From positions 1,116,001 through 1,180,000 of the forward strand of contig NZ_CP107819.1 of NCBI RefSeq assembly GCF_036346295.1: a stretch of DNA of 64,000 bases, in the 5' to 3' direction. Position numbers and translations under genes: made by a program. Positions 4,398-30,310 of this stretch are shown piece after piece (the stretch's first letter is position 1; each line of letters starts with the position of its first letter). Under the pieces are notes generated by a model. It was not told the DNA's origin and did not search any database. It was given only the letters and a program-made list of their open reading frames with translations. The DNA is from Streptomyces sp. NBC_00536. Its GTDB lineage: Bacteria > Actinomycetota > Actinomycetes > Streptomycetales > Streptomycetaceae.

Positions 4398-5655
4398 CGG
4401 ATCCCCCCTTGGTCAACACCATGGCGCTCTGGAAACCGCCGAACCCGCTGCCGACCTTGAGCACCGTCCGCAGGTCCGCCTGTCGCGCCGTCAGCGGCAC
4501 GTAGTCGAGCCCCAGTTCCGGGTCGGGTTCGTGCAGGTTGGCGGTCGGCGGAATGAGCCCGGCGTCGATGGCCAGCGCGCATGCCGCGATCTCGATCGAG
4601 CCGATCGCGCCCAGCGAGTGCCCGATCATGGACTTGATCGAACTGACCGGCGTCCGGTAGGCGTGGTCGCCGAGAGTGCGCTTGAACGCGTTGGTCTCGT
4701 GCGCGTCGTTCTGCTTCGTACCGGAGCCGTGCGCGTTCACGTAGTCGACCTGCTCGGGTACCCGCCCGGCCATCCGCAGCGACACCTCGATGGCCTTGGC
4801 CAGTTCCGGGCCCTCGGTCCTGAGTCCGGTCATGTGGTACGCGTTGGCACGCACGTCCCATCCGCCGATCTCCGCGTAGACGCGCGCGCCGCGTTCCCTG
4901 GCGTGGTTCAGCTCTTCCAGCACCAGCATCGCGCTGCCTTCGGCGAGCACGAAGCCGTTCCGTGTGCGGTCGAACGGGCGGGACGCGGTGGCCGGTTCGT
5001 CGTTGCGCGGCGTCGTCGCCTTGATCGCGTCGAAGCAGGCGACGCAGATCGGTGAGAGGGACGCGTCCGAGCCGCCGGCCAGCATCACGTCGGCAGAGCC
5101 CTCGCGGATCAGCCGCGCCGCGTGGGACACCGACTCGATGCCCGCGGTGCATCCCGTGGACACCAGGGACACGGGGCCTTCCGCCCCGGCCGTCCAGGCC
5201 ACGTCCGCGGCGATCGACGTCGGGACGAGATAGTTGTACATGTGCGGCACCGCGTACTCGTGGTCGAGAAGCCACTTGCGGCCGCCGTCGGAGAGCACGT
5301 TGTACTCCCGGTCCAGGCTCATCGTGCCGCCGATGGCACTGCCGACGCTGGCCCCGCAGCGATGCGGGTCCATCTCGGCCAGGTCGAGTCCGGCGTCCGC
5401 GACGGCTTCCCTGGTCGCGGCGACGGCGAGCTGCGCGCTCCGGTCCATGCGCCGGATCTCCTGCGCGGAGAAGCCCTCCGCGACCGGGTCGAAATCGCAC
5501 TCGCCCGCGATCCGGGAGCGGAACCCGGACGCGTCGAAGAGCGAGATGGTGCGTATGGCCGAGGTGCCGGAGGAGATCAGCTCCCAGAACTCCTTGGCGT
5601 TTCGTCCGCCCGGGGCGCGCACTCCGATACCCGTGATGGCGATGCGGCGGGTCAT
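4390..5655 (-). CDS. Type II PKS ketosynthase alpha subunit
   Basis: A 421-aa ketosynthase with a complete catalytic set: Cys169 in VSTGCTAGIES, His in YVNAHGSGTKQND and His in KSMIGHSLGAIGS. It catalyses decarboxylative Claisen condensations with malonyl-ACP on the KSbeta partner. ATG at 5655 is chosen because homology begins at MTRRIAITGIG; the frame stays open 23 codons further upstream with no homology. Sequence around GECDFDPVAEGFSAQE resembles the anthracycline/tetracenomycin branch of KSalpha, as far as one can tell by eye. It is translationally coupled to the CLF. The P450 gene upstream reads the same way and may share its transcript. Confidence 0.95.
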   Translation of the reverse strand: MTRRIAITGIGVRAPGGRNAKEFWELISSGTSAIRTISLFDASGFRSRIAGECDFDPVAEGFSAQEIRRMDRSAQLAVAATREAVADAGLDLAEMDPHRCGASVGSAIGGTMSLDREYNVLSDGGRKWLLDHEYAVPHMYNYLVPTSIAADVAWTAGAEGPVSLVSTGCTAGIESVSHAARLIREGSADVMLAGGSDASLSPICVACFDAIKATTPRNDEPATASRPFDRTRNGFVLAEGSAMLVLEELNHARERGARVYAEIGGWDVRANAYHMTGLRTEGPELAKAIEVSLRMAGRVPEQVDYVNAHGSGTKQNDAHETNAFKRTLGDHAYRTPVSSIKSMIGHSLGAIGSIEIAACALAIDAGLIPPTANLHEPDPELGLDYVPLTARQADLRTVLKVGSGFGGFQSAMVLTKGGSDE

Positions 5656-11512: not shown

Positions 11513-12483
11513 CGGCCGGCCGACGTGACCGAGGTGGTGTGCAGGCCGACGGTTCCCGCCAGTTCGGCCAGTTGCTCCAGGGTGTGCTGTCGGCCTCCGA
11601 AGTAGCCCAGCATGCGCAGGTCGCCCTCCGTCTGCACGGTCCGGTCACCGAAGTAGTCCACGACGAGCACACGTCCCGTCGTCTGCGCCGCGTCGGCGCA
11701 GCGGCGCAGGATACGGGCGGCCGCCGCGTCGTCCCAGTTGTGCAGGATGCTCGACAGCAGATATCCGTCCGCTCCGGCGGGAAGATCGTCGAAGAAACTG
11801 CCGGCCGCGACGTCGGCCCGGTGATCGAGACCGGCCGCGGCGATGGCCTTCTCGGCGCGGCGCACCGGGCCGGGCAGGTCGACGACCGTCCCCCTCAGAT
11901 CGGGGTAGGACTGCAGGATGGCGATCAGCATGGTGCCGTCGCCACCGCCGACATCGACCACATGACGGAGCGTTCCCCACGGATACGCCCCGGCCACGGC
12001 CGGCGAGTGCGCCGTCAGCCTGGCGCCCATCAAGGTGTCGAAGGACTCGGCGCGCCCGTCGTCGGACGACAGGTCGTCCCAGAACGTCACACCGTACTGC
12101 TGCGGGAACGCGGCCTCACCCGTACGTACCGTGTGCAACAGGTGGACGAGGCTCAACTCTGCGTGTCCCAAGGCGCCTTCGATGTCGAGTATGGCCCGCA
12201 TGTCCTCGGGCGCGCCCTCGCACAGGTGGCGGCCCATGGCCGTCAGGTCGTAGGCGCCGTGCCCGGTGCCCGACAGCACGCCCGCGGTCACCAGGTGGTC
12301 CAGCAGCCGCCCCAGCGCGTCCCGGTCGGCGCCGACGGCTTCGGCCAGCGCCTCGGTCGTCCGGGCGCCCGCGGCGATGTGGTCGGCCAGCCGCAATGTC
12401 GCCGCCACCCGGACGGCCATCGGGGTCAGCAGATCGGCGGCTGCCCACACTCCCCCGCCTCGGGGGGTCGTCTCCTTGGCCAT
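11479..12483 (-). CDS. DnrK/TcmO-type O-methyltransferase
   Basis: A 334-aa protein with an N-terminal dimerisation/winged-helix domain (ADLLTPMAVRVAATLRLADH) and a C-terminal methyltransferase domain: motif I VVDVGGGDGTMLIAIL, then LRGTVVDLPGPV and LLSSILHNWDDAAA. This is the plant-COMT-like fold of carminomycin 4-O-methyltransferase and related polyketide enzymes. It should O-methylate a phenol of the product using SAM. ATG 12483 is preceded by AGGAG; upstream codons lack homology. It is encoded downstream of the aromatase/cyclase on the same strand. Confidence 0.92.
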   Translation of the reverse strand: MAKETTPRGGGVWAAADLLTPMAVRVAATLRLADHIAAGARTTEALAEAVGADRDALGRLLDHLVTAGVLSGTGHGAYDLTAMGRHLCEGAPEDMRAILDIEGALGHAELSLVHLLHTVRTGEAAFPQQYGVTFWDDLSSDDGRAESFDTLMGARLTAHSPAVAGAYPWGTLRHVVDVGGGDGTMLIAILQSYPDLRGTVVDLPGPVRRAEKAIAAAGLDHRADVAAGSFFDDLPAGADGYLLSSILHNWDDAAAARILRRCADAAQTTGRVLVVDYFGDRTVQTEGDLRMLGYFGGRQHTLEQLAELAGTVGLHTTSVTSAGRYSVVELRAVG

Positions 12484-12624
12484 GACTTCTCCTGACTCGA
12501 CGGTTCTCTGTTCGTGGGACCCGGCCGGGACGGTGTCGGTGCCGGTGCGGCAGCTCACGTCCGGCCGGGTGGTTCCTCGCCCCTCGCGCTGCGGCGAGGT
12601 CTCTCGGAGGCCGGTGCGGCCGGC

Positions 12625-17731: not shown

Positions 17732-18091
17732 GTGGAGGCGCAAGCATCCCCTCCAGCCCGTACTGAAGCCGAGGAAGGACCACGACATGACCAACCCCCG
17801 CCGCATCGTCATCGGAAGCTCAATCACGAACTGTGGACCGTCAATCAGGAGACCAGCCCACTGCGTGGAGTACGGCGCTACAAGGCCCTGGTGGCGATGC
17901 GCCTCCGCCTCGACGTGATCATCCGGCAATTCGGCATGGTGCGCACCGCGCACTGGCACACCCACTTCGATGTACGGACCTGCGTCTACGGGCTTCTACA
18001 CATCTCCCGCAACACCGTCTACGAGGCGTGCCGTTCGAAGAAGTACCCCTCAGCCACCCGCGGGAGTGGCGCCGCCTCGGGCCATGCCTGA
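17732..18091 (+). pseudogene. Unrecognised, probably broken coding sequence
   Basis: The frame through about 17830-18050 (LWTVNQETSPLRGVRRYKAL, then HWHTHFDVRTCVYGLLHISR) shows strong third-position GC and looks coding, but matches no family I recognise. A plausible start, ATG 17787 with GGAAGGA upstream, is in a different frame. Towards 18030 the coding pattern moves to another frame (VPFEEVPLSHPREWRRLG). A short frame starting at 18085 ends by ATGA overlap with the PPTase. This fits a small gene coupled to the PPTase that carries frameshifts. No function is proposed. Confidence 0.35.
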
Positions 18092-18154
18092 CCTGGCCCA
18101 GCAGGTCCCGCACCGGCCCGACACCACCACGAACGCGAACACGGAAACCGTCGC

Positions 18155-18802
18155 ATGATCGACTCCCTCCTGCCCCCCGCCGCCCGCGCCATTCAGTCCT
18201 TCACCCATCGGCTGGACATCACTCTGTCCCCTCAGGAAGAGGCGCTCATCGCGAGAGCCGTCCCGAAACGGCGCAACGAGTTCACCACCGTCCGCGCGTG
18301 CGCCCACGAGGCACTGGCCGCGCTCGGCCTGGCTCCGGTTCCGCTGCTCCCGGACGAGCGGGGCGCCCCGGGCTGGCCGCCCGGGGTCGTCGGCAGCATG
18401 ACGCACTGCGCAGGCTACGGTGCCGCCGCGGTGGCCCACGCCCATGAGATGACCGCGCTCGGCATCGACGCCGAGCCCAACTCCCCGCTTCCGGAAGGGA
18501 TACTGGAAGCCGTAACCCGCCCCGAGGAACGCTCCGCCCTGGCCTCACTTGCCGCCTTACCCGCCGCGGCGGCCGGGCCCGCATGGGACCGCCTCCTGTT
18601 CAGCGCCAAGGAGTCCGTATACAAGGCGTGGTACCCGGTGACCCGCCGTCGGCTGGACTTCCAGGAGGCGTTCCTCGAACTCGCCCCAGACGGCACGTTC
18701 ACCGCCCGCATCCTCGTCCCCGCCCCGCCCGAACTCGCCTGTGTGCACGGACGTTGGGCCGCCGACAGCGGACATGTGCTCACGGCCGTGGCCGTGGAGT
18801 AG
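18155..18802 (+). CDS. Sfp/Svp-type 4'-phosphopantetheinyl transferase
   Basis: A 215-aa PPTase of the EntD/Svp subgroup. Diagnostic motifs: VVGSMTHCAGYGAAAV, the Mg2+-binding ALGIDAEPN, and LLFSAKESVYKAWYP (F/WxxKEA-like). It transfers the phosphopantetheine arm of CoA to carrier proteins, here probably Ser41 of the ACP at 1533, though such enzymes are promiscuous. Start ATG 18155 overlaps the preceding short frame (ATGA). It marks the right end of the polyketide cluster, because what follows is non-coding and then mobile-element territory. Confidence 0.93.
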   Translation: MIDSLLPPAARAIQSFTHRLDITLSPQEEALIARAVPKRRNEFTTVRACAHEALAALGLAPVPLLPDERGAPGWPPGVVGSMTHCAGYGAAAVAHAHEMTALGIDAEPNSPLPEGILEAVTRPEERSALASLAALPAAAAGPAWDRLLFSAKESVYKAWYPVTRRRLDFQEAFLELAPDGTFTARILVPAPPELACVHGRWAADSGHVLTAVAVE

Positions 18803-19112
18803 GTGTAGGGGCCTCGCCACCGGTTCCGGTTGACCAGTGGGCGAGCCCGCAAGGCCGGCAGAAGGCCCGCGAAACGGGATCCATCGGCAAAACAGGCCGG
18901 CCGCAGCTCGCGCCCCGCCCAGGCCGACAGCCCCTCAGACCGGTGCAGCCGAACACGCCACTCGTGTGACGCCCCACTGAGCATCACGGGACGTCAGCAC
19001 CGAGAGGCGAGTGGACGGGGTCGACCAAGGCTTGGCGACTCGTCCACGCCGCGCGAGCGCTTCACCCGGCGGCCATCAATCGCGCACTACGAACCGTCAG
19101 GAATCGCGCCGT
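18803..19112. other. Intergenic region at the cluster/island junction
   Basis: Nothing coding was recognised between the PPTase stop and the first copy of the RNA-methyltransferase 3' end. No clear terminator or RNA gene was seen. Confidence 0.35.
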
Positions 19113-19254
19113 TCGTGCGTCAAACGTGCGTCGAACATGCGTCAAGATATCGCACATAACGCACGTAACACCCATCATGCACACTCGGAGAAACAGCCGG
19201 TCAGCGGCCCTTTTCGGCAGGCTCCAGGATCGCCACGCACTCCACGTGGTGGGT
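19113..19254 (-). pseudogene. 3' end of a TrmA/RumA-type RNA methyltransferase gene plus downstream DNA, copy A
   Basis: On the minus strand 19254-19201 reads THHVECVAILEPAEKGR and stop, the conserved C-terminus of TrmA/RumA-like 23S rRNA or tRNA uracil methyltransferases. Past the stop, DNA to 19113 (elements tcaagatatcgc and cgtgcgtcaaacgtgcgtc) closely resembles the copy at 33143-33312. The rest of the gene is absent here. Short 3' gene ends like this are typical of integration sites, where an element brings the end of its target gene. It is not expressed as a protein. Confidence 0.7.
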
Positions 19255-19715
19255 CCTTGAAATAAGATCTATCAAAAACATGTGAATGGAAACCCCAGGT
19301 CAAAGGCTCGTGTAGCGCAATTCGGACAGGCTGCCGGTGTGCGTTACGTGCAGAGTGTGCGGCATGCGCAGTGGCCTGACGCTTCTTACCCGCCCGAGCA
19401 CCGCGGCGACGGCTCCCGACGCCACTCGCCCCCGCGCCTTCCTGGCCCTGATCGTCCAGATCGCGGATCGGCCGCGTTGTCGTAACCGTGCGTGAGGCAG
19501 TCGCGCGACCGGCCAGGCGGGTTGACTTCACCGGGCGCGGGCGCGGACAACAACGACACGGGGACGACCCGATGTTGCCTTGTGCAAGTCCCATCGCCGA
19601 CCTGCCGAGAGTCCCTGCCTGCATGTGCGTACGACCGGTAGATCACCCAGCGGCTGGGCCTCGCCGGACGGGATGGCGCCGAGGTCGGTGCCAGGACGCA
19701 CCAGCGCATGGGTTG

Positions 19716-20261
19716 CATGGGTGGGAGTACTACTTCGCGTCCCAGGCCCACGAGGCCATCCTCCAGGCCCGCCGTGGTATCGCCGGTACTGCTCTGACGG
19801 TGTCCATGGGCGAGCGGGCCGCCGGCATCGATGTCCCCGCAACAGCGTTTCACAGTCCCCAACTGCGCATCATGCGGGAGCTGGCGGTGGACGTCCCGCT
19901 GATGTGCAACGACGTGTACTCGCTGGAGAAGGAGGAGGCTCGCGGCGACGTCGACAACCTCGTCCTGTTCCTCGAAAACGACCGGCAGGTGTCCCGGCAG
20001 GCAGCGGTGGCCACTGCCGGGGAGGAAGTGCACCGGCGCTGCGCCCGTTTCCAGGAGCTGGCCGGCCAGGTGCCGGCCGTGTGCGACCAGCTCGGCCTCA
20101 CCTCCTGGGAGCGGGTCGCGGCAGACACGTACGTCGAGGTGATGACCGCCTGGATGAGCGGCTACAGCGCCTGGCAGAGCCAGACCCTGCGCTACACCAG
20201 CGCCCCCGAGGTGGTACCGAGTTCGGGCCCCGGCTACTTCGAAAACGTCCTCGGAGCGTAA
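19716..20261 (+). pseudogene. 5'-truncated terpene synthase
   Basis: About 180 codons match the C-terminal half of class I bacterial terpene cyclases: [15 protein letters not shown], the metal-binding NSE/DTE-type motif [23 protein letters not shown], and a final helix with [17 protein letters not shown]. The N-terminal half with the DDxxD motif is missing. Upstream sequence from 19488 is open in frame but unrelated. It cannot make a functional cyclase and is probably a relic cut by rearrangement at the island edge. The stretch 19255-19715 holds nothing else recognised. Confidence 0.8.
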
Positions 20262-20500
20262 GCGCTCCGGCGGCGCCCGGGTGAGGCTCCCGGGCTGGCT
20301 TCGACCCCTTTCTCTTCGTAGGAGCGACGATGGGCGTGGCCCACGTCGGGGCCGCACTCCACCGCATACGACGACGGGTTCGCGCCCGTGGCTGGGCCAA
20401 CGGCACCTTCCTGAGTTCGTCAGCGGAGTGCAGCGGCCCTCCACCGGCCTGTGGGCTGGTGAAGGGCCGCGCTTACCGGGGACGCGAGGTCACCGGGCGG

Positions 20501-22174
20501 TCAGGGGCAGGTGACCAGGACGATGGAGAGGACGGTGCAGGTCGCGCTCGCGGCGTCGTTGGCGGGGTTGGGGTCGGTGGGTGCGGAGGTGGTGCGCAGG
20601 CCGGTGACCGTGACCGGGCCCAGGGTCAGCAGGTGCAGCGGGACGCGGAACGTCTTGTTCACGCTCGTACCGTTGGGGATGGCGCCGTAGGTACAGGTGA
20701 CGGTGGTGGCGGCAGTGGTGCAGCCGGCGGACAGGTTGGTGGCGGAGGCGCCTGGCGGCAGGGTGGCGGTCAGGGTCGCGGAGGCGACGGCGCCGGGGCC
20801 GGTGTTGTGGGCGGTCAGGGTGTAGGTCAGGTAGGGCACCAGGATGCCCAGGTGCGGCTGTGCGCTCAGGTCGACATCGAGGTCGGCGGGCGGCGCCAGG
20901 TAGGTGTACTGGTCGGCTGCTGTGACGGCGCTGGTACCGCCCGGGGTGATGACGCGCACATCAACGGTCCCGGCCGGGTGGGCGGGGGCGGTGGCGGTGC
21001 AGGAGGTCGCAGTGCAGGTGATGCCGGTGGCGGCCGTGCCGCCGAAGGTGACCGCCGTGGCCCCGGTCAGGTTCGTGCCGGTGATCGTGACGGGGGTGCC
21101 GCCTGCGGTCGGGCCGGAGGCCGGGCTGACCGATGTCACCGTCGGGGCCGGCGGCAGCGGGGCGGGGCCGAACGCGATCCCGTAGGGCTGGTTGAAGCCG
21201 GGAAGGGTCGTGGTGACGGTGTTGGTGGCGGTGTCGATGACCGACACCGTGTCGTTGCCGAGGTTGCTGGTGTAGGCGGTGGCGCCGTCCAGGGAGAACG
21301 CCAGGTTCTGCGGGTAGCTGCCGACGGCGATGGTGGCGGCAGTGGTGTTGGTGGCGGTGTCGACGACCGTGACGGCGCCGCTGTTCTGGCTCACGACGTA
21401 CACCGCCGTGCCGGCCGGGTTGACGGCCAGATTCCAGGGTCCGTAAGCGACCGGGACGGTCGCGGTGATCGTGCCGGTGGCGGTGTTCACGACGGCCAGG
21501 GTGTTGTTGCCGTTGTTCGCGACGTAGGCCGTGGCGCCGTTGGGGCTGAATCCGACGTCGATCGGTCCGTTGAACCCGGTGAGGGTGGAGACCAGGGTGT
21601 TGGTGGCGGTGTCGAATATCTTCACGGTGTTGTCGCCGACATTGGAGACGTACAGGCGGGTGTCGTCCGGGCTGAGCGCCGGCCACCATGGGGTGCTCAG
21701 CCCGGTCAGCGTCGCGGTGACGGTGTTGGTGGCGGTGGCCACGACCGAGACCGTGCCGTCGTTCTGGTTGACGACGTACAGCCGCGAGCCGTCCGCGCTG
21801 ATCGTCAGCGGGTCCGGCCCGCCACCGACCGGGATCGTGGTCAGCACGCTGTTGCTGGTGGTGTCGATGACGGCCACGTCATTGTCGTTGATGCTCGTGA
21901 CGTAGGCCCGCGTGCCGTTCGGGGAGACCGCGATCGATTCGGGGTAGCCGGTCACCGGGATGGTGTTCAAGACCGCATGGGTCGCCGCGTCCAGCACCTT
22001 TACGTCCTGGCCGATGTGATCCACCACGTACAGCCGCTCCCCGGCGGCGGCCAGGGCCGGACCGGCCCCGGTCAGAGCCCCGCCCAGGCCCAGCATCATC
22101 ACCAGGGTCAGCACGGTGCACCGTGACCACCACCGCCCACGCGCAGAAGAACGCAACGTACCAGTTGCAACCAT
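20501..22174 (-). CDS. Secreted YVTN beta-propeller protein with TIG and DUF11-like domains
   Basis: 557 aa starting at ATG 22174 behind GAGGGGGA. A signal peptide (CTVLTLVMMLGLGGALTGAG, ending near LAAAG, residue about 41) is followed by seven repeats of about 42 aa of the type xxYVxN..D(G/N)TVxVxDTATNTVxxT, a seven-bladed propeller. Then come an IPT/TIG Ig-like domain (PTVTSVSPASGPTAGGTPVT) and a DUF11-like domain (LTYTLTAHNTGPGAVASATL). Such proteins are extracellular and bind partners or surfaces; no enzyme site is seen. It stands alone and reads towards the terpene relic, next to the profilin gene on the same strand with about 240 bp between. Confidence 0.85.
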   Translation of the reverse strand: MVATGTLRSSARGRWWSRCTVLTLVMMLGLGGALTGAGPALAAAGERLYVVDHIGQDVKVLDAATHAVLNTIPVTGYPESIAVSPNGTRAYVTSINDNDVAVIDTTSNSVLTTIPVGGGPDPLTISADGSRLYVVNQNDGTVSVVATATNTVTATLTGLSTPWWPALSPDDTRLYVSNVGDNTVKIFDTATNTLVSTLTGFNGPIDVGFSPNGATAYVANNGNNTLAVVNTATGTITATVPVAYGPWNLAVNPAGTAVYVVSQNSGAVTVVDTATNTTAATIAVGSYPQNLAFSLDGATAYTSNLGNDTVSVIDTATNTVTTTLPGFNQPYGIAFGPAPLPPAPTVTSVSPASGPTAGGTPVTITGTNLTGATAVTFGGTAATGITCTATSCTATAPAHPAGTVDVRVITPGGTSAVTAADQYTYLAPPADLDVDLSAQPHLGILVPYLTYTLTAHNTGPGAVASATLTATLPPGASATNLSAGCTTAATTVTCTYGAIPNGTSVNKTFRVPLHLLTLGPVTVTGLRTTSAPTDPNPANDAASATCTVLSIVLVTCP

Positions 22175-22411
22175 GACGAAATTCCCCCTCACGTGCCGCG
22201 ACACACCAGCGGGGCCGAAGGCCCCTGGGAACCGGTATGGACGCGATCCAGCCAGACGCCCCACTCCCCAGGCCCTGGAACGTCCCCACCCCGTCGCCAC
22301 GGGAACCCGAGGCGACGGCCGCACGAACCCGCCTGACGACCGGGCCTGACGCGTTCCTGAACCGATGAGGCACCCCGTCGCTGGGCTACAGGAGGTGCGA
22401 GGCTGCGACGG

Positions 22412-22795
22412 TCAGTAGCCGTTCTCGATCAGGTAGTCGGCGGTGACTTCCACACGGTTATAGGCTTCGCCAGGTATCTGGCCCGCGGTGTAGCAGCCGA
22501 TGACGATGGCCTGTCCGGTGTGGGCCAGCCCGACGCCAGCGGTGCTCCTCGCACCCCGGATGGACCGTTCGTCGCCCTTGTTGCCCTGGTACGTCACCCC
22601 GCAGACGGTGACGCCAGAGCTGAAGACCAGGGTGGGGTTCTTGTAGAGGGCGACGAGGGCCGCACCCTCGCCGGCCTTGAGGACGAGCGTGGGGGTGTTG
22701 GCCCAGACCGCCCCGTCCGCGGCGCTGATGATGGCTGCTCCCCGTACCTTGCCGGACGCTACGAGGTCATCGACGAGCGTTTGCCAGGAGGACAT
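22412..22795 (-). CDS. Profilin homologue
   Basis: A 127-aa protein of profilin length. It begins MSSWQTLVDDLVASGKV and has AAIIS..DGAVWA, CGVTYQG, ERSIRGARSTAGVGLAHTGQ, AIVIGCYTAGQIPG and a final VEVTADYLIENGY. These follow the order of eukaryotic profilins, in particular amoebal ones (MSWQxYVD, AAI.G.DG..WA, RSI.GKKG..G, TGQA, PG...VE...DYLI.QG). Profilin binds actin monomers, proline-rich peptides and phosphoinositides. ATG 22795 has GGAAAG upstream. Profilins are rare in bacteria; a case in the cyanobacterium Microcystis was ascribed to transfer from a eukaryote. No actin-like gene is in the window, so its partner here is unknown. Confidence 0.85.
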   Translation of the reverse strand: MSSWQTLVDDLVASGKVRGAAIISAADGAVWANTPTLVLKAGEGAALVALYKNPTLVFSSGVTVCGVTYQGNKGDERSIRGARSTAGVGLAHTGQAIVIGCYTAGQIPGEAYNRVEVTADYLIENGY

Positions 22796-22939
22796 GGCAT
22801 ACCTACTTTCCAGGGCAACGTCAGGAACCCTGGCCGCAGTTGGCCCGGTCTAGCGAAGTGTTCTGGACCGTGGGTGGGCAAAGTATGGAAATCAACTTGC
22901 GCGGCCGGAAACAGAGATTTGTTGGCCGGTCCGGCTTGA

Positions 22940-23170
22940 TCACGGGCACGGCGCCGCTCGGCCGGGCGGCAGTCGACGACAACCGCCGGATCGAAGTCCA
23001 GCAGCATCACCTGGTCCCGCTCCAGCCACGACTCGTATCCCACGCGACCGCCCGTCGTCGCCGACCACCACCGGGCCCGGCAGGTTGCGCTGCCGGCGGT
23101 AGGACGTGGAGGCGCGTACGGGAAGAGCGTGCTCGAACGGGACAGCCCAGGCAGCCGTCAAAATACCGGG
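22940..23170 (-). pseudogene. TnsA-like endonuclease fragment
   Basis: On the minus strand two frames together give a segment resembling actinobacterial TnsA-like proteins: TSYRRQRNLPG in one frame, then VGYESWLERDQVMLLDFDPA in another. TnsA proteins are the 5'-cleaving endonucleases of Tn7-like elements. Only the middle is left, with at least one frameshift, so it is non-functional. It sits between the profilin gene and the IS3 element. The remaining part of 22796-23184 shows nothing else. Confidence 0.5.
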
Positions 23171-23236
23171 TCTGCCGCACGATCGGGTGACATCTGATCT
23201 GGCTTGCCCTGTGGGGTAGGTGGGAAGGATGTCGCT

Positions 23237-23545
23237 GTGCCCAAGCCTTATCCGGAAGAGTTCCGTCAGGATGTCGTGCGGGTCGCGAGGAACCGCGGCC
23301 CGGGCGTGACGGTCGAGCAAGTGGCCGCCGACTTCGGAGTCCATGCGATGACGCTGTGGAAGTGGATGCGCCGGGCGGACATCGACGACGGGGCCAAGCC
23401 CGGAACAACCAGCCAGGAGAGCGCGGAGCTGCGCGAAGCGCGTCGGCGCATCAAGCTGCTGGAGCAGGAGAACGAGGTCTTGCGCCGGGCCGCGGCCTAC
23501 CTGTCCCAGGCGAACCTTCCGGGAAAAGGATCTACCCGCTCGTGA
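23237..23545 (+). CDS. IS3-family transposase orfA
   Basis: A 102-aa DNA-binding subunit from GTG 23237. It carries a helix-turn-helix (VTVEQVAADFGVHAMTLWKW) and a leucine-zipper coil (ELREARRRIKLLEQENEVLR), the classic OrfA layout. Near the end, a GGGAAAAGG stretch around 23520 could support a -1 ribosomal slip into the orfB frame, producing the OrfAB transposase. It binds the element's ends and regulates transposition. Confidence 0.88.
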   Translation: MPKPYPEEFRQDVVRVARNRGPGVTVEQVAADFGVHAMTLWKWMRRADIDDGAKPGTTSQESAELREARRRIKLLEQENEVLRRAAAYLSQANLPGKGSTRS

Positions 23546-24399
23546 AAGAGCTGGCCGTGGACGGGGTGCCCGTCACGGTGACGTGCCGGGTCCTCAAGCT
23601 CGCCAGAGCGCCCTACTACCGGTGGCTGGAGCGGCCGGTGACCGATGCCGAGGTCGAGCGGGCCGCTCGCGCGAACGCGTTGTTCGACGCCCACCGTGAG
23701 GACCCGGAGTTCGGCTACCGCTTCCTGGCCGACGAGGCCCGCCGCGCGGGATCCGGCATGGCCGACCGGACCGCGTGGCGGATCTGCCGGGACAACCGCT
23801 GGTGGAGCGTGTTCGGCAAGAAGCGTGGCAGGAACAAGAAGGCCGGCCCACCGGTGCACGACGATCTCGTTCGCCGCGACTTCACCGCGACCGGCCCGAA
23901 CCGGCTGTGGCTCACCGACATCACCGAACACACCACCGGCGAGGGGAAGCTGTATCTCTGCGCGATCAAGGACGTCTTCAGCAAGCGGATCGTGGGCTAC
24001 TCCATCGACACGCGCATGAAGTCCCGCCTGGCCGTCGCCGCCCTGGACAACGCCGTGGCCCGGCGTGAACACGTCGCCGGATGCATCCTGCACAGCGACC
24101 GCGGATCGCAGTTCCGGTCCCGGAAATTCGTCCGGGCGCTCGACCGGCACCGCATGGCCGGATCGATAGGGAGGGTCGGGGCGGCCGGCGACAACGCGGC
24201 CATGGAGTCCTTCTTCAGCCTGCTGCAGAAGAACGTCCTCGACCGCCGGACGTGGACCACCCACCAGGAACTGCGGATCGCGATCGTCACCTGGATCGAG
24301 AGGACCTACCACCGCCGCCGCAGACAAGCCGCACTCGGCCGGCTGACCCCCGTCGAATTCGAGACCGTCATGACGACACCGGCCCTCCAGGCCGCGTAA
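23542..24399 (+). CDS. IS3-family transposase orfB (DDE integrase domain)
   Basis: 285 aa from GTG 23542; its frame is -1 relative to orfA and open further upstream to allow the OrfAB fusion. It has the HTH_21-like region (AHREDPEFGYRFLADEARR) and the rve integrase core with the triad: Asp in LWLTDITEH, Asp in CILHSDRGSQF, Glu in NAAMESFFSLLQ. It ends with YHRRRRQAALGRLTPVEFE, typical of the family. All catalytic residues are present. Confidence 0.93.
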   Translation: MKELAVDGVPVTVTCRVLKLARAPYYRWLERPVTDAEVERAARANALFDAHREDPEFGYRFLADEARRAGSGMADRTAWRICRDNRWWSVFGKKRGRNKKAGPPVHDDLVRRDFTATGPNRLWLTDITEHTTGEGKLYLCAIKDVFSKRIVGYSIDTRMKSRLAVAALDNAVARREHVAGCILHSDRGSQFRSRKFVRALDRHRMAGSIGRVGAAGDNAAMESFFSLLQKNVLDRRTWTTHQELRIAIVTWIERTYHRRRRQAALGRLTPVEFETVMTTPALQAA

Positions 24400-24626
24400 C
24401 CGAACCTGTCACCCAAACCTGCATCAGACCCACCGGCCCCACACACTCGACGGCTTCATAGCCGGCACCAGCCTCACCTTCGACAACCCAGCCTCACCCT
24501 GAAGCGCCGAAGTCAGTAACGGCGGTCGCGCCCGGAGCTGTACCTATCGGCGCCGCTCAGGTCGAGCGCCCGCCTCGATCACCGCGGATCTCGTGCCCCG
24601 GCGCTTGCTTGATCGTTGACTTCTCC

Positions 24627-25496
24627 ATGGAGATCACTACTGGCCGTTCGGCGCTGGGCTGCGTCATCGGCGCCACCGTCTTGACGCTGTGCACCGCGAC
24701 CGGCGCCCCCGCCGCAGCTCCGGCACCGAGCGGCACATTCACCACGACGACCTTCGGGACGTTCAACAGCCCCCAGATCCCGGCAGGTTCGAAAGTCATC
24801 ATTGTCGCCGGCGGGGGCGGGGGCGGCGCGGGCGGGAGCATCAATACGGAGCACAAGGACTCCTCGGGGGGCGGCGGCGGAGGCGGCGGCACGGTCACCT
24901 GCGAGATCTACAACTTCCAGGGTGGCACCATCACCGGCTTCGTCGGCGGCGGCGGCCACAACGGCGCCTGGGGCGTCGGCGATCCCGGAGGGCGCGGCGG
25001 GGAAGGTTCCGGCCCCGTGACCACCGGCGGCGCCGGCGAAGGGGGCGCCTTCATGAACATCGCCGGCCGGGGCAACGGCGGCAAAGGTGCAGCGCCAGGC
25101 CAGGCGCTCAGCGACCACCCCGGCAAGGGCGGTGAAGGGGCGAACGCCCACGTCGGCGGCGCCTACACCGGCAGTTCCGGTGGGGGCGGGGGCGGCGCGA
25201 CGTCCCTCGACGGATACGTCACCGCCGGTGGAGGCGGCGGGGGCGGCGGCGCTTCCTTCGACCGCACCATCCACGGTGGTGGCGGGCACGGCGGCGGCGG
25301 TCTGCGCCAGGACAACTCCGCCTGCAACTCCACGCTGATCGAACGGGGTGGTGACGGCGCTCCCGGCAAGAGTCTTCAGCCCGGCAAGGGCGGCACCAGT
25401 ATCGGCGGCGGCACCGGCAACACGACCATCGAGCCGTCCACCAACCGCGACGAAGCCAGCAATGGCCGAGTCAAGATCACCTGGAAGCCGGCCTGA
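24627..25496 (+). CDS. Secreted glycine-rich protein
   Basis: 289 aa with a signal peptide (ALGCVIGATVLTLCTATGAP, about residues 9-28) followed by TFTTTTFGTFNSPQIPAGSK and a glycine-rich body holding many runs such as GGGGGGAGG and SGGGGGGGG, and ending RVKITWKPA. The N-terminal part resembles the entry strand of glycine-rich beta domains in surface and receptor proteins. No catalytic motif is seen. A role in the wall or as a matrix protein is possible but not shown. ATG 24627 lacks a good ribosome site; TTG 24609 in frame is an alternative. Confidence 0.65.
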   Translation: MEITTGRSALGCVIGATVLTLCTATGAPAAAPAPSGTFTTTTFGTFNSPQIPAGSKVIIVAGGGGGGAGGSINTEHKDSSGGGGGGGGTVTCEIYNFQGGTITGFVGGGGHNGAWGVGDPGGRGGEGSGPVTTGGAGEGGAFMNIAGRGNGGKGAAPGQALSDHPGKGGEGANAHVGGAYTGSSGGGGGGATSLDGYVTAGGGGGGGGASFDRTIHGGGGHGGGGLRQDNSACNSTLIERGGDGAPGKSLQPGKGGTSIGGGTGNTTIEPSTNRDEASNGRVKITWKPA

Positions 25497-26042
<546 letters not shown>

Positions 26043-28279: not shown

Positions 28280-29710
28280 TCATCCGATGGTCGGCCAGGG
28301 GGAAGGGATGACCGTTCCCCGGTATCGGTAGCGCGTCGTGCGTACCTTGCCGGGATCGAACAGTGTCCGTTCCTCCCCTGCCGGCCACCATCCCCCGCCG
28401 CAGTAAAGACGGCGGAGATCCTTCCTGTTGATCCGGAGGTGTTTGCGACGCAGCCACTTCATGACCTGGCTCCACGTGTACGAGCTCAGGTACTGGAAGG
28501 TCGCGCTGGACACCCCGGGGCGGAAGTACATGCACCAGCCGAACAGCATCCGGTTGATCTGGATGAGCAGTTCGTCCAGTGGCAGGCCGGTGGCCGTTCT
28601 GCGGCGTACCGCCTTGACCTTGCCCATCGCGGCCGTCAGGGCCTTGCGCGAGGGGTAGGTGTAGACGTAGCTGCGACTGGAACCTCGTTTGCGGTGGCGC
28701 TGGATGCGCCACCCGAGGAAGTCCAGTCCCTCGTCGATGTGGGTGATCAGGGTCTTCTCCACGGACAGGCGCAAGCCCATCGTGGACAATACCTCCGCGA
28801 TCTCCTCGCGCAGAGACTCGGCGTCGTCCTTGGTGCCCTTGATCATTAGGCACCAGTCGTCCGCGTACCGGGTCAGCCGGTAGTTGGGGAGACCTTGACG
28901 AAGCCGCTTGGTCCGCGCCCAAGGCGTGGACCTCGGGCCTCCCGGAGACTGGGCGATGTGCTCGTCCAGGACCGACAGCGCCACGTTGCTCATCAACGGC
29001 GAGAGAATCGAACCCTGTGGGGTACCGGCGGTGGTCTCTCGAAGTACACGGTCCTCACCGAGGATGCCCGACTTCAAGAATGCCTTCACCAAGATCAGGA
29101 CACGTTTGTCTCCGACGCGCTTGCGCACCCGGTCCATCAGAGCGGAGTGTGAAATCTCGTCGAAGCAGGCCTTGATGTCGCCCTCCACGATCCACTCATA
29201 CGACTTGGACGTGAAGAACCGCACCTCGGCCACCGCGTCATGAGCCCGGCGGTTCGGACGGAACCCGTAGGAACACGGCAGGAAATCCGCCTCGAAAATT
29301 GGCTCCAGCACCAGCTTCAAGGATGCCTGCACCACCCGGTCCGCGATCGTGGCGATCCCCAGACGGCGCAACTTGCCGCCCGCCTTGGGGATCATCCGCT
29401 CCCGCACCGGCAGCGGACGGAAACTACGGTTCTTGATGCTCTCCCGCAGTCTGCCGAGGAACTCCTCGACGCCCGTCCGCTCCGCGATGGACGCCGCGGT
29501 GCGGCCATCCACCCCGGCGGTCTTCGCACCCTTGTTACCCCGCACCTGATCCCACGCGACCAGCAGGAACGCGGGATCGGCACAGAGGTTGAACAGGTCA
29601 TCGAACCTGCGATGAGGATCATCGCGGGCCCAACGGTGCAGCTTGGTCTGGATCTCCAGTACCCGTCGCTCCGCCCCATAGGTGACGGCCTCAAGTTCGT
29701 CGGTATTCAC
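28280..29710 (-). CDS. Group II intron reverse transcriptase/maturase
   Basis: 476 aa from GTG 29710, chosen because AGGAGG lies about 9 bases upstream. RT blocks include AGVDGRTAA, IPKAGGKLRRLGI, CSYGFRPNRRAHDAV, GDIKACFDEISH, GTPQGSILSPLM and the catalytic YADDWCLM, followed by a maturase (X) domain with FLGWRIQRHR and LFGWCMYFRPG. No HNH endonuclease domain (Cys pairs) is present, so retrohoming would rely on other priming. It should bind and help splice its own intron RNA. Confidence 0.93.
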   Translation of the reverse strand: MNTDELEAVTYGAERRVLEIQTKLHRWARDDPHRRFDDLFNLCADPAFLLVAWDQVRGNKGAKTAGVDGRTAASIAERTGVEEFLGRLRESIKNRSFRPLPVRERMIPKAGGKLRRLGIATIADRVVQASLKLVLEPIFEADFLPCSYGFRPNRRAHDAVAEVRFFTSKSYEWIVEGDIKACFDEISHSALMDRVRKRVGDKRVLILVKAFLKSGILGEDRVLRETTAGTPQGSILSPLMSNVALSVLDEHIAQSPGGPRSTPWARTKRLRQGLPNYRLTRYADDWCLMIKGTKDDAESLREEIAEVLSTMGLRLSVEKTLITHIDEGLDFLGWRIQRHRKRGSSRSYVYTYPSRKALTAAMGKVKAVRRRTATGLPLDELLIQINRMLFGWCMYFRPGVSSATFQYLSSYTWSQVMKWLRRKHLRINRKDLRRLYCGGGWWPAGEERTLFDPGKVRTTRYRYRGTVIPSPWPTIG

Positions 29711-30310
29711 CGGCGAGAACCTCCTGGTCTTCCAGCACTTCGGCCACTGACTTACTGGCCCCCTTCGCCATGTACGCGCCATTAACGCGCTCGGACTACT
29801 ACGGGGCCTCCGCCACGTACTGGAGCCATCAGCCGACAACGGGCCTGCCCACCGGCTGACTGGATATCAGCCGGGAAGGGCGGTTCCAGCACGCTTCCCA
29901 CGTTCACCACTTACCGGTCGACGAGCGAGCCGCCCAGCTCTACCCCGACAGCATCGCCACGCCTACGCCGCAGGCATTCAACGTGGCCTCCTCACCAGCA
30001 TCGAAAGACCGGCTTCGAAGTCGCCGCCCGACAGGCGGCGTGCGCTGCACCCGGCCCATATCCTCCAGATTGGAGCCGGTGGAACACTTACGGGACGTCA
30101 GGCACTGGTTCCTCTCGTACGGCGTCTCGTCTTGCTTGCCGGACCCGCGCCGTCTGGAAGTACCGACGCGCTCCGTCGTTGTCAGGGCTGCTCCTACCTC
30201 CCCGTGCGTCTCCACGGATCGGCTGCCCTCAGCTTCACCGGACTGCTGCGACAGTCCGGCAGCAGGGGTCTTGCACCCCTGCCCGGTAACAGTGGCGCCT
30301 CGTGGCGCAC

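What the first reader, a model, noticed from the sequence alone, without database searches (positions are those of the whole stretch)
22412..22795. A profilin homologue in an actinomycete accessory island
The 127-aa protein follows the profilin pattern from MSSWQTLVDD to DYLIENGY without gaps in the main elements and at the right length. Profilins are eukaryotic actin regulators; few bacterial cases are known (established: Microcystis actin/profilin pair ascribed to transfer from a eukaryote). Here the gene has a ribosome site, host-like GC-rich codons and lies among IS elements next to a secreted propeller protein. It could be acquired from an amoeba or other protist and used to act on host actin, or reused for proline-rich or lipid ligands. 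No actin gene is visible.
Basis: partly seen in the sequence, partly recalled or inferred. Interest (0 to 1): 0.92.

Follow-up and report, generated by a model that had tools for sequence, protein, structure and literature searches.

The report
Eukaryotic profilin gene in a streptomycete
A bacterium of the Streptomyces family carries an intact gene for profilin, a protein that controls actin in fungi, amoebae and animals, although the bacterium has no such actin; it is one of a scattered set of eukaryote-type genes in these bacteria, and this copy seems to have lost several of the usual contact residues.

Summary
Confirmed: window 22795-22412 (minus strand) encodes a real 127-aa profilin: PF00235 E=2.3e-34 over the whole model, predicted profilin fold at pLDDT 97, 1.1-1.2 Å from S. 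pombe and Acanthamoeba crystal structures. It is the only profilin match in its genome; the actin-like hits are MreB/Mbl. It is not unique: 11 of 394 Streptomycetaceae genomes, own included, carry profilin; some are on plasmids, some broken. Eleven bacterial rows are not one clade (AU p=6e-7); two are sister to the fungus Conidiobolus (100/99). The window copy's donor is unresolved. At four positions almost fixed in 67 non-bacterial rows it differs: the poly-proline Tyr is Leu; K67, Y79, K81 are Thr, Arg, Ala. Canonical binding by this copy is doubtful; the host-actin idea is weakened, not excluded. Unexpected: ADF/cofilin occurs in 12 of 297 genomes of the family, TCTP and eIF5A on Streptomyces plasmids, cofilin and TCTP once in one island. 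Most likely: an acquired eukaryotic protein under relaxed or changed selection.

The parts
22412..22795 (-). profilin gene, 127 aa, intact
   Evidence: PF00235 E=2.3e-34 full length; AF2 pLDDT 97 and Foldseek to solved profilins; GC3 0.85
22806..22811 (-). weak Shine-Dalgarno-like GGAAAG, 10 bases before the ATG
   Evidence: read from sequence; not tested for function
22775..22777 (-). codon of Leu7, position of the poly-proline tyrosine (S. pombe Y5)
   Evidence: Y in 67 of 67 non-bacterial rows
22592..22594 (-). codon of Thr68, position of S. pombe K67 (actin face, recalled)
   Evidence: K/R/H in 67 of 67 non-bacterial rows
22556..22558 (-). codon of Arg80, position of S. pombe Y79
   Evidence: Y in 65 of 67 non-bacterial rows; contact role not established here
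22550..22552 (-). codon of Ala82, position of S. pombe K81 (actin face, recalled)
   Evidence: K/R in 67 of 67 non-bacterial rows
20501..22324 (-). neighbour: beta-propeller (YNCE-like) with IPT/TIG domain, same strand, 87 bases downstream
   Evidence: Pfam; neighbour only, not shown to belong functionally
23167..24439 (+). neighbour: IS element with rve transposase (IS3-like by organisation)
   Evidence: Pfam; 100% identical copies at C1:8648690-8649962 and C1:6557544-6558808
28280..29839 (-). neighbour: group II intron-type reverse transcriptase/maturase
   Evidence: PF00078 and PF08388

Best explanation
Shown: the gene encodes a genuine profilin, correctly folded by prediction, in a Streptomycetaceae chromosome that has MreB/Mbl but no eukaryotic-type actin match. 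Shown: profilins are scattered over this family, on chromosomes and plasmids, are not of one bacterial clade, and are broken in about a quarter of the bearers found. Inferred: the ancestor came from a eukaryote (fungus or protist; donor of this copy unresolved), and in a cell without actin and formins the protein was released from its old ligands. The fold stays while poly-proline and actin contact residues drift. My committed mechanism for this copy: a leaderless cytosolic profilin-fold protein that no longer works as a normal actin-monomer or poly-proline binder, and survives either as a small binding module for a bacterial partner or as a transient passenger under weak selection.
For: Family and fold. 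One profilin, no eukaryotic-type actin; in the 18 profilin-bearing genomes the best printed single actin match is 47.8 bits and the best printed sum of pieces 53.5, while the two checked proteins, both from the own genome, are MreB/Mbl. Patchiness, own genome in each count: 11 of 394 (family), 8 of 392 (genus), 3 of 394 (class), 1 of 396 (phylum). Plasmids: 4 records, all Streptomycetaceae. Breakage: 5 of 18 genomes (G131, G258, G534, G666, G900), and the copies of pRLB1-9.2 and NBC_00513 lack N-terminal parts in frame. Several origins: AU test rejects one bacterial clade of 11 rows, p=6e-7; well-supported branches force at least 3 label changes, which may include losses; two rows sister to Conidiobolus 100/99. 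Contact drift: four sites in the window copy; eight main-cluster rows 14/64 interface departures against 26/230 at other conserved sites (Fisher p 0.039), group B 21/30 against 40/113 (p 0.0008), one Conidiobolus-type and one Ardenticatenaceae row 0/16 against 2/58. Crude dN/dS 0.51-0.90 in five classic pairs.
Against: The ORF is intact with host-like codons, so some selection is likely. By the stricter list of conserved sites the window copy departs at 2 of 8 interface positions against 3 of 29 others (p 0.29), so the drift claim rests on groups of related, non-independent rows, and the interface list is partly recalled. dN/dS from saturated GC-rich codons is rough. W4, W31, Y121, Y127 of the poly-proline site, and R77 and a basic residue at 73, are kept. 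P0009 from Streptomyces keeps every listed poly-proline and basic actin-face position. The tree is unrooted, metagenome rows of unknown origin and one fungus sit in the cluster, and the Ardenticatenaceae record is a MAG that could hold eukaryotic DNA. SpoIIE-type phosphatase genes lie within about 2 kb of three profilins, and some group B loci share other neighbours (L024/L042, L042/L043), so context is not wholly random.
Confidence: 0.55

Rival explanations
1. Eukaryote-directed protein: Streptomycetaceae keep acquired actin-monomer binders (profilin, ADF/cofilin) and release or inject them into fungi, amoebae or other neighbours, where they disturb actin.
For: Two unrelated actin binders, profilin and cofilin, are present in 11 of 394 and 12 of 297 genomes of a family in which no eukaryotic-type actin was seen in the 18 genomes examined; one Conidiobolus-type copy keeps all listed contacts; the own genome holds five matches to a contractile sheath family, a possible delivery machine; turnover fits an arms race.
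Against: No leader or extension on the protein by eye; the window copy has changed contacts; sheath matches occur in 15 of 30 profilin or cofilin genomes with no background rate measured, and in the own genome lie more than 6 Mb away; the pool also holds TCTP and eIF5A, so it is not restricted to actin. None of the 12 cofilin genomes is listed with profilin, but chance alone would give less than one.
Confidence: 0.17
2. Neutral passenger: small eukaryotic genes enter Streptomyces often (as DNA, or as reverse-transcribed mRNA of abundant transcripts), ride on plasmids and chromosomes, and decay without ever having a use.
For: Patchiness, breakage in 5 of 18 genomes, no neighbour shared by most loci, high dN/dS, mobile setting.
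Against: Some lineages persist and diverge under constraint: group B (four genomes) has dN/dS 0.24-0.44 and the group C pair 0.12; 16 of 17 bacterial cofilin rows form one clade that has spread over several genera; actin, 14-3-3, LC8, NTF2 and histone H4 gave no plasmid match and ubiquitin none in Streptomyces, so inflow does not look indiscriminate, with the sensitivity caveat given under Tried and rejected.
Confidence: 0.25
3. Assembly contamination or a chance look-alike.
For: None beyond the oddity itself.
Against: The gene lies inside an 8.66 Mb contig of a 4-contig assembly and has GC3 0.85; relatives lie in complete plasmid records and other long contigs; Pfam E=2.3e-34.
Confidence: 0.01
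4. Old vertically inherited bacterial profilin, related to the ancestor of the eukaryotic ones.
For: The tree is unrooted.
Against: In the phylum scan only the own genome of 396 has it; bacterial rows are not one clade (AU p=6e-7) and two sit beside one fungus.
Confidence: 0.02

Closest known systems
Acanthamoeba and fungal profilins (PF00235; 1acf, 2acg, 3d9y, 1ypr)
   Same: length, full-length model match, fold at 1.1-1.4 A, W4, W31, Y121, Y127 kept
   Different: no eukaryotic-type actin in the bearer; no formin match either, without positive control; Y5, K67, Y79, K81 positions changed
Microcystis aeruginosa PCC 7806 PfnM with ActM (PMC3254629; outline, abstract and Discussion read)
   Same: eukaryotic-type profilin on a bacterial genomic island, ascribed to horizontal transfer
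   Different: there a eukaryotic-type actin is encoded with it and is bound; here no such actin was found. The PfnM sequence was not compared here
Asgard archaeal profilins (Odin 5zza; 5zzb and 5yed as Loki profilins, recalled)
   Same: profilin fold (5zza, TM 0.80-0.85)
   Different: very distant in sequence: 5zzb E=6e-4 with a 40-row profile, not found with the single protein up to E=1
Mammalian PFN4 (PMC2694148; passages and one section read)
   Same: profilin fold with loss of canonical contacts
   Different: PFN4 lost both actin and poly-proline sites and bound phosphoinositides; the window copy keeps four of five poly-proline aromatics

Membership tests
Profilin family (PF00235) | Profile match over the curated cut-off across the domain | tested here: met
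   118.7 bits against 25, model 1-127 of 127
Profilin family (PF00235) | Profilin fold | tested here: met
   AF2 pLDDT 97, pTM 0.90; TM 0.92-0.95 to yeast, S. pombe and Acanthamoeba crystal structures. Predicted, not solved
Functional profilin | Poly-proline aromatic cluster (W, Y, W, Y, Y/F) | tested here: inconclusive
   4 of 5 positions kept; Leu at the Tyr whose mutation made binding undetectable in Leishmania
Functional profilin | Basic actin-facing residues | tested here: inconclusive
   R77 and K73 kept; K67 and K81 equivalents are T and A; site assignment partly recalled
Functional profilin | Binding of actin and poly-proline | not testable with these tools
   needs purified protein
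Actin/profilin pair as in Microcystis | Eukaryotic-type actin encoded with the profilin | tested here: not met
   own genome: three PF00022 matches in two proteins, both MreB/Mbl; 18 profilin genomes: scores in the same range
Secreted or injected effector | Export signal or delivery-linked gene neighbourhood | tested here: inconclusive
   protein begins MSSWQ directly, judged by eye, no signal predictor run; neighbours are IS, propeller, biosynthetic genes; sheath matches elsewhere in the genome

The most novel reading that the evidence does not exclude
Streptomycetaceae hold a mobile repertoire of small, leaderless eukaryotic cytosolic proteins (profilin, ADF/cofilin, TCTP, eIF5A, perhaps cyclophilin and ML-domain proteins), repeatedly taken from fungi and protists, sometimes gathered in one plasmid island, and used against or with eukaryotic neighbours; several of them meet on monomeric actin although the bacteria have none. 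The profilin of this window would be an ageing member of that repertoire.
Probability: 0.2. Interest if true: 0.92.

Novelty: new variant of a known kind. Interest (0 to 1): 0.74.

Why it matters
In the papers found here bacterial profilin is described from one cyanobacterium that also has the actin; its authors in 2012 called it the only known prokaryotic homologue of a eukaryotic actin-binding protein (PMC3254629, Discussion read). Profilin and cofilin without such actin, in a few per cent of a well-studied bacterial family, give a natural experiment on what an actin regulator becomes when its target is absent, and a direct way to test whether these bacteria recruit eukaryotic proteins for dealings with fungi and amoebae. 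Because the copies range from close to fungal to strongly diverged, the order of contact loss can be measured within one family.

Tried and rejected
Tried without result: genome-contig scan with the single protein (68 pattern matches, 0 relatives; the second scan gave 2 of 85); IMG/VR scan (0 of 59) and phage records, so no viral carrier was seen; neighbour comparison of 17 loci (one pair of them the same genome) and 21 loci for a partner shared by most loci (none; SpoIIE-type phosphatases lie within about 2 kb of three profilins, L024, L034, L042; I did not pursue them because streptomycetes have many such genes, recalled); formin FH2 in the own genome (none, but nothing rang in the controls either); TCTP in 14 genomes, 13 with open profilin copies plus G031 (none; no positive control rang). 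Literature: ten searches. Judged by the titles and abstract openings listed, none is about profilin, cofilin or TCTP in Streptomyces; only open-licence PMC text is held and at most 20 rows were listed per search, so this is weak evidence of absence from print.

Considered and rejected: that the nearby propeller is a partner (not conserved); that a plasmid-borne eukaryotic-type actin is its target (yeast-type actin query, 0 of 72,556 plasmid records); that uptake is restricted to actin binders (TCTP, chosen beforehand as a non-actin control, did ring in Streptomyces plasmids; that TCTP itself touches actin and cofilin is recalled). That uptake is wholly indiscriminate is unlikely but not excluded: sensitivity was unequal, since profilin, cofilin and eIF5A were queried with bacterial copies and TCTP and the other controls with eukaryotic sequences, and eIF5A was picked because it lay beside TCTP.

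Rows dropped: one search used 62 of the 116 non-bacterial proteins held plus three Acanthamoeba rows; itself listed 120 of 651. In the second profilin tree ten long-branch or diverged bacterial rows were left out (G112, G088, G302, G785, G1049, G898, S. cattleyicolor, S. ferralitis, G836, G250). In one search the fungus Cladobotryum was left out of the eukaryote set. The NBC_00513 copy and the broken copies of G131, G258, G534 and G900 were in no tree. The cofilin tree used 54 named rows out of 120 listed of 1390, and no diverged copies from L066-L076.

Full report
Observation. The ORF runs on the minus strand from 22795 to 22412 and encodes 127 aa. PF00235 matches end to end at E=2.3e-34; the nearest solved proteins are Acanthamoeba, yeast and S. 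pombe profilins. The model has mean pLDDT 97.0 and pTM 0.90 and superposes on S. pombe and Acanthamoeba crystal structures at 1.1-1.2 A. GC3 is 0.85, like its neighbours; the ribosome site is weak.

Setting. The window is bases 1116001-1180000 of an 8.66 Mb contig in a 9.15 Mb, 4-contig genome. The genus of the window was not established. Around the gene are a terpene synthase that matches only the C-terminal half of its model (19488-20261), a phosphopantetheinyl transferase, a short-chain dehydrogenase, a propeller/TIG protein, an IS element with two identical copies elsewhere in the genome, and a group II intron-type reverse transcriptase. I read this as an accessory region. In 60 relatives searched with the 7.6 kb stretch 18000-25600, no listed match covers the profilin part (query 4413-4796), while the IS, propeller and other genes are matched (the list was cut).

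Actin. The own genome's three PF00022 matches lie in two proteins, both MreB/Mbl (459 and 519 bits for PF06723 against 50.7-55.7 for actin). In 18 profilin-bearing genomes the best printed single actin match is 47.8 bits and the best printed sum 53.5, the same range; those proteins were not checked one by one. FH2 formin: none in the own genome, without positive control.

Distribution. PF00235 was found in 11 of 394 genomes of the family, 8 of 392 of the genus, 3 of 394 of the class and 1 of 396 of the phylum, the own genome being one in each; the sets overlap. Together they give 18 genomes, 16 in this family and 2 (G534, G666) in other families of the class. Copies of 13 are open, though group B starts late in the model; 5 are broken: G131, G258, G534, G666, G900. 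Ten open copies other than the window's were scanned and all pass the Pfam cut-off. Plasmids: 4 records (pRLB1-9.2, two of S. cattleyicolor, NBC_00513); the pRLB1-9.2 and NBC_00513 copies lack N-terminal parts in frame. Phage and viral collections: none. NCBI names several of these proteins "profilin", so the proteins are in databases, but my ten paper searches listed no paper about them in streptomycetes.

Origin. In a tree of 76 rows the 11 bacterial rows are not one clade (AU p=6e-7), and well-supported branches force at least three changes of label, gains or losses. The window copy lies in a 14-row set (98/91) with six other Streptomycetaceae rows, G666 of another actinomycete family, five metagenome rows of unknown origin and one fungus, Cladobotryum mycophilum. 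The NPDC017993 and pRLB1-9.2 copies are sister to Conidiobolus coronatus (100/99). A Chloroflexota MAG copy (Ardenticatenaceae) groups with two short metagenome sequences; contamination of that MAG is not excluded. An earlier 85-row tree gives the same Conidiobolus and MAG groupings and a similar mixed cluster at lower support. Direction is inferred from patchiness and nesting; the tree is unrooted and Cladobotryum leaves the direction open for that row.

What it does. Alignment to S. pombe profilin shows four changed positions in the window copy: Y5 to L7, K67 to T68, Y79 to R80, K81 to A82. In 67 non-bacterial rows (eukaryotic plus metagenome) these are Y 67/67, K/R/H 67/67, Y 65/67 and K/R 67/67. 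In Leishmania profilin Y6A made poly-proline binding undetectable, K86E abolished and K68A weakened actin binding (PMC10907219, passages); equating those lysines with K81 and K67 is my inference, and the list of interface positions used is partly recalled. Across groups the drift is graded: 0 of 16 interface departures in one Conidiobolus-type and one Ardenticatenaceae row (2 of 58 elsewhere), 14 of 64 in eight main-cluster rows (26 of 230 elsewhere; p 0.039), 21 of 30 in group B (40 of 113 elsewhere; p 0.0008), while the window alone is 2 of 8 against 3 of 29, not significant (rows are related, so p-values are optimistic). Crude dN/dS is 0.51-0.90 for five classic pairs, 0.24-0.44 for four group B pairs and 0.12 for the one group C pair. 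I read this as retention of the fold with loss of the eukaryotic ligands, in some lineages under purifying selection for something else.

A wider pool. As a comparison family, ADF/cofilin PF00241 was searched: 12 of 297 family genomes have it, not the own genome. Of 17 named bacterial cofilin rows 16 form a clade (94/93) inside a set (96/76) with Termitomyces, Hypsizygus and two Tephrocybe; the 17th is a very long branch. On plasmids (72,556 records) cofilin has 2 records, both Streptomyces; TCTP 6, all Streptomyces; eIF5A 6, all S. anulatus and nearly identical; actin, 14-3-3, LC8, NTF2 and histone H4 none; ubiquitin 3, none in Streptomyces. One S. globisporus megaplasmid has an EF-hand protein, cofilin, cyclophilin, TCTP and an ML-domain protein within about 6.5 kb (L079:15874-22319); S. 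anulatus has eIF5A and TCTP 6 kb apart. So profilin is one of several eukaryote-type small proteins in these bacteria. That the choice is neither random nor confined to actin binders is a suggestion from few families and unequal queries. TCTP was not found in 13 genomes with open profilin copies nor in G031.

Delivery. The protein starts directly with the profilin fold. The own genome has five matches to the contractile sheath family PF04984, at 7.36-8.27 Mb against 1.14 Mb for the profilin; 15 of 30 profilin or cofilin genomes have one. In G005 a sheath match lies about 98 kb from the profilin on the same megaplasmid; linkage elsewhere was not compared. No background rate was measured, so this neither supports nor excludes delivery.

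Verdict. A real, eukaryote-derived profilin, probably no longer a canonical actin or poly-proline binder in this copy, in a bacterial family that seems to sample such genes repeatedly. The host-actin effector reading survives mainly for the contact-complete relatives.

Noticed in passing
L064-L076 (12 genomes); P0126-P0232 in part: ADF/cofilin homologues in 12 of 297 Streptomycetaceae genomes; the Embleya copy is 78-84% identical to Lyophyllum, Termitomyces, Hypsizygus, Asterophora, Tephrocybe and Sphagnurus, others are strongly diverged.
   Followed up: partly
L079:15874-22319 (Streptomyces globisporus NBC_01078 megaplasmid): A 6.5 kb stretch with EF-hand, cofilin, GH108, cyclophilin, subtilase, TCTP and ML-domain proteins, several of them eukaryote-type.
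   Followed up: partly
L080:5438-5908 and 12057-12560 (S. anulatus plasmid NZ_CP109263.1): A gene annotated eIF5A and a TCTP gene 6 kb apart near a linear plasmid end.
   Followed up: partly
P0097 (Cladobotryum mycophilum, 5.07 Mb contig): A fungal record named Profilin-P falls inside the Streptomyces profilin cluster; direction of transfer unknown.
   Followed up: no
P0082 (Ardenticatenaceae bacterium MAG): Profilin in a Chloroflexota MAG, 88% identical to a short metagenome sequence; neither its actin content nor contamination was examined.
   Followed up: no
L024, L042, L043, L044 (group B) and L026, L027 (group C): Two diverged profilin subfamilies that lost most poly-proline aromatics; group C pair shows dN/dS 0.12.
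   Followed up: partly
L034:12379-13512, L042:7291-8139, L024:4849-6315: SpoIIE-type phosphatase genes within about 2 kb of three profilins, directly adjacent in L034.
   Followed up: no
G000:C1 7356700, 7358597, 7673493, 7676126, 8274052: Five contractile-sheath matches in the own genome, suggesting phage-tail-like systems.
   Followed up: no
window 19488-20261: A terpene synthase ORF matches only the C-terminal half of PF19086 and looks truncated.
   Followed up: no
NC_014824.1 388198-388422 (Ruminococcus albus plasmid): A ubiquitin-family gene 88% identical to the ubiquitin query on a bacterial plasmid.
   Followed up: no
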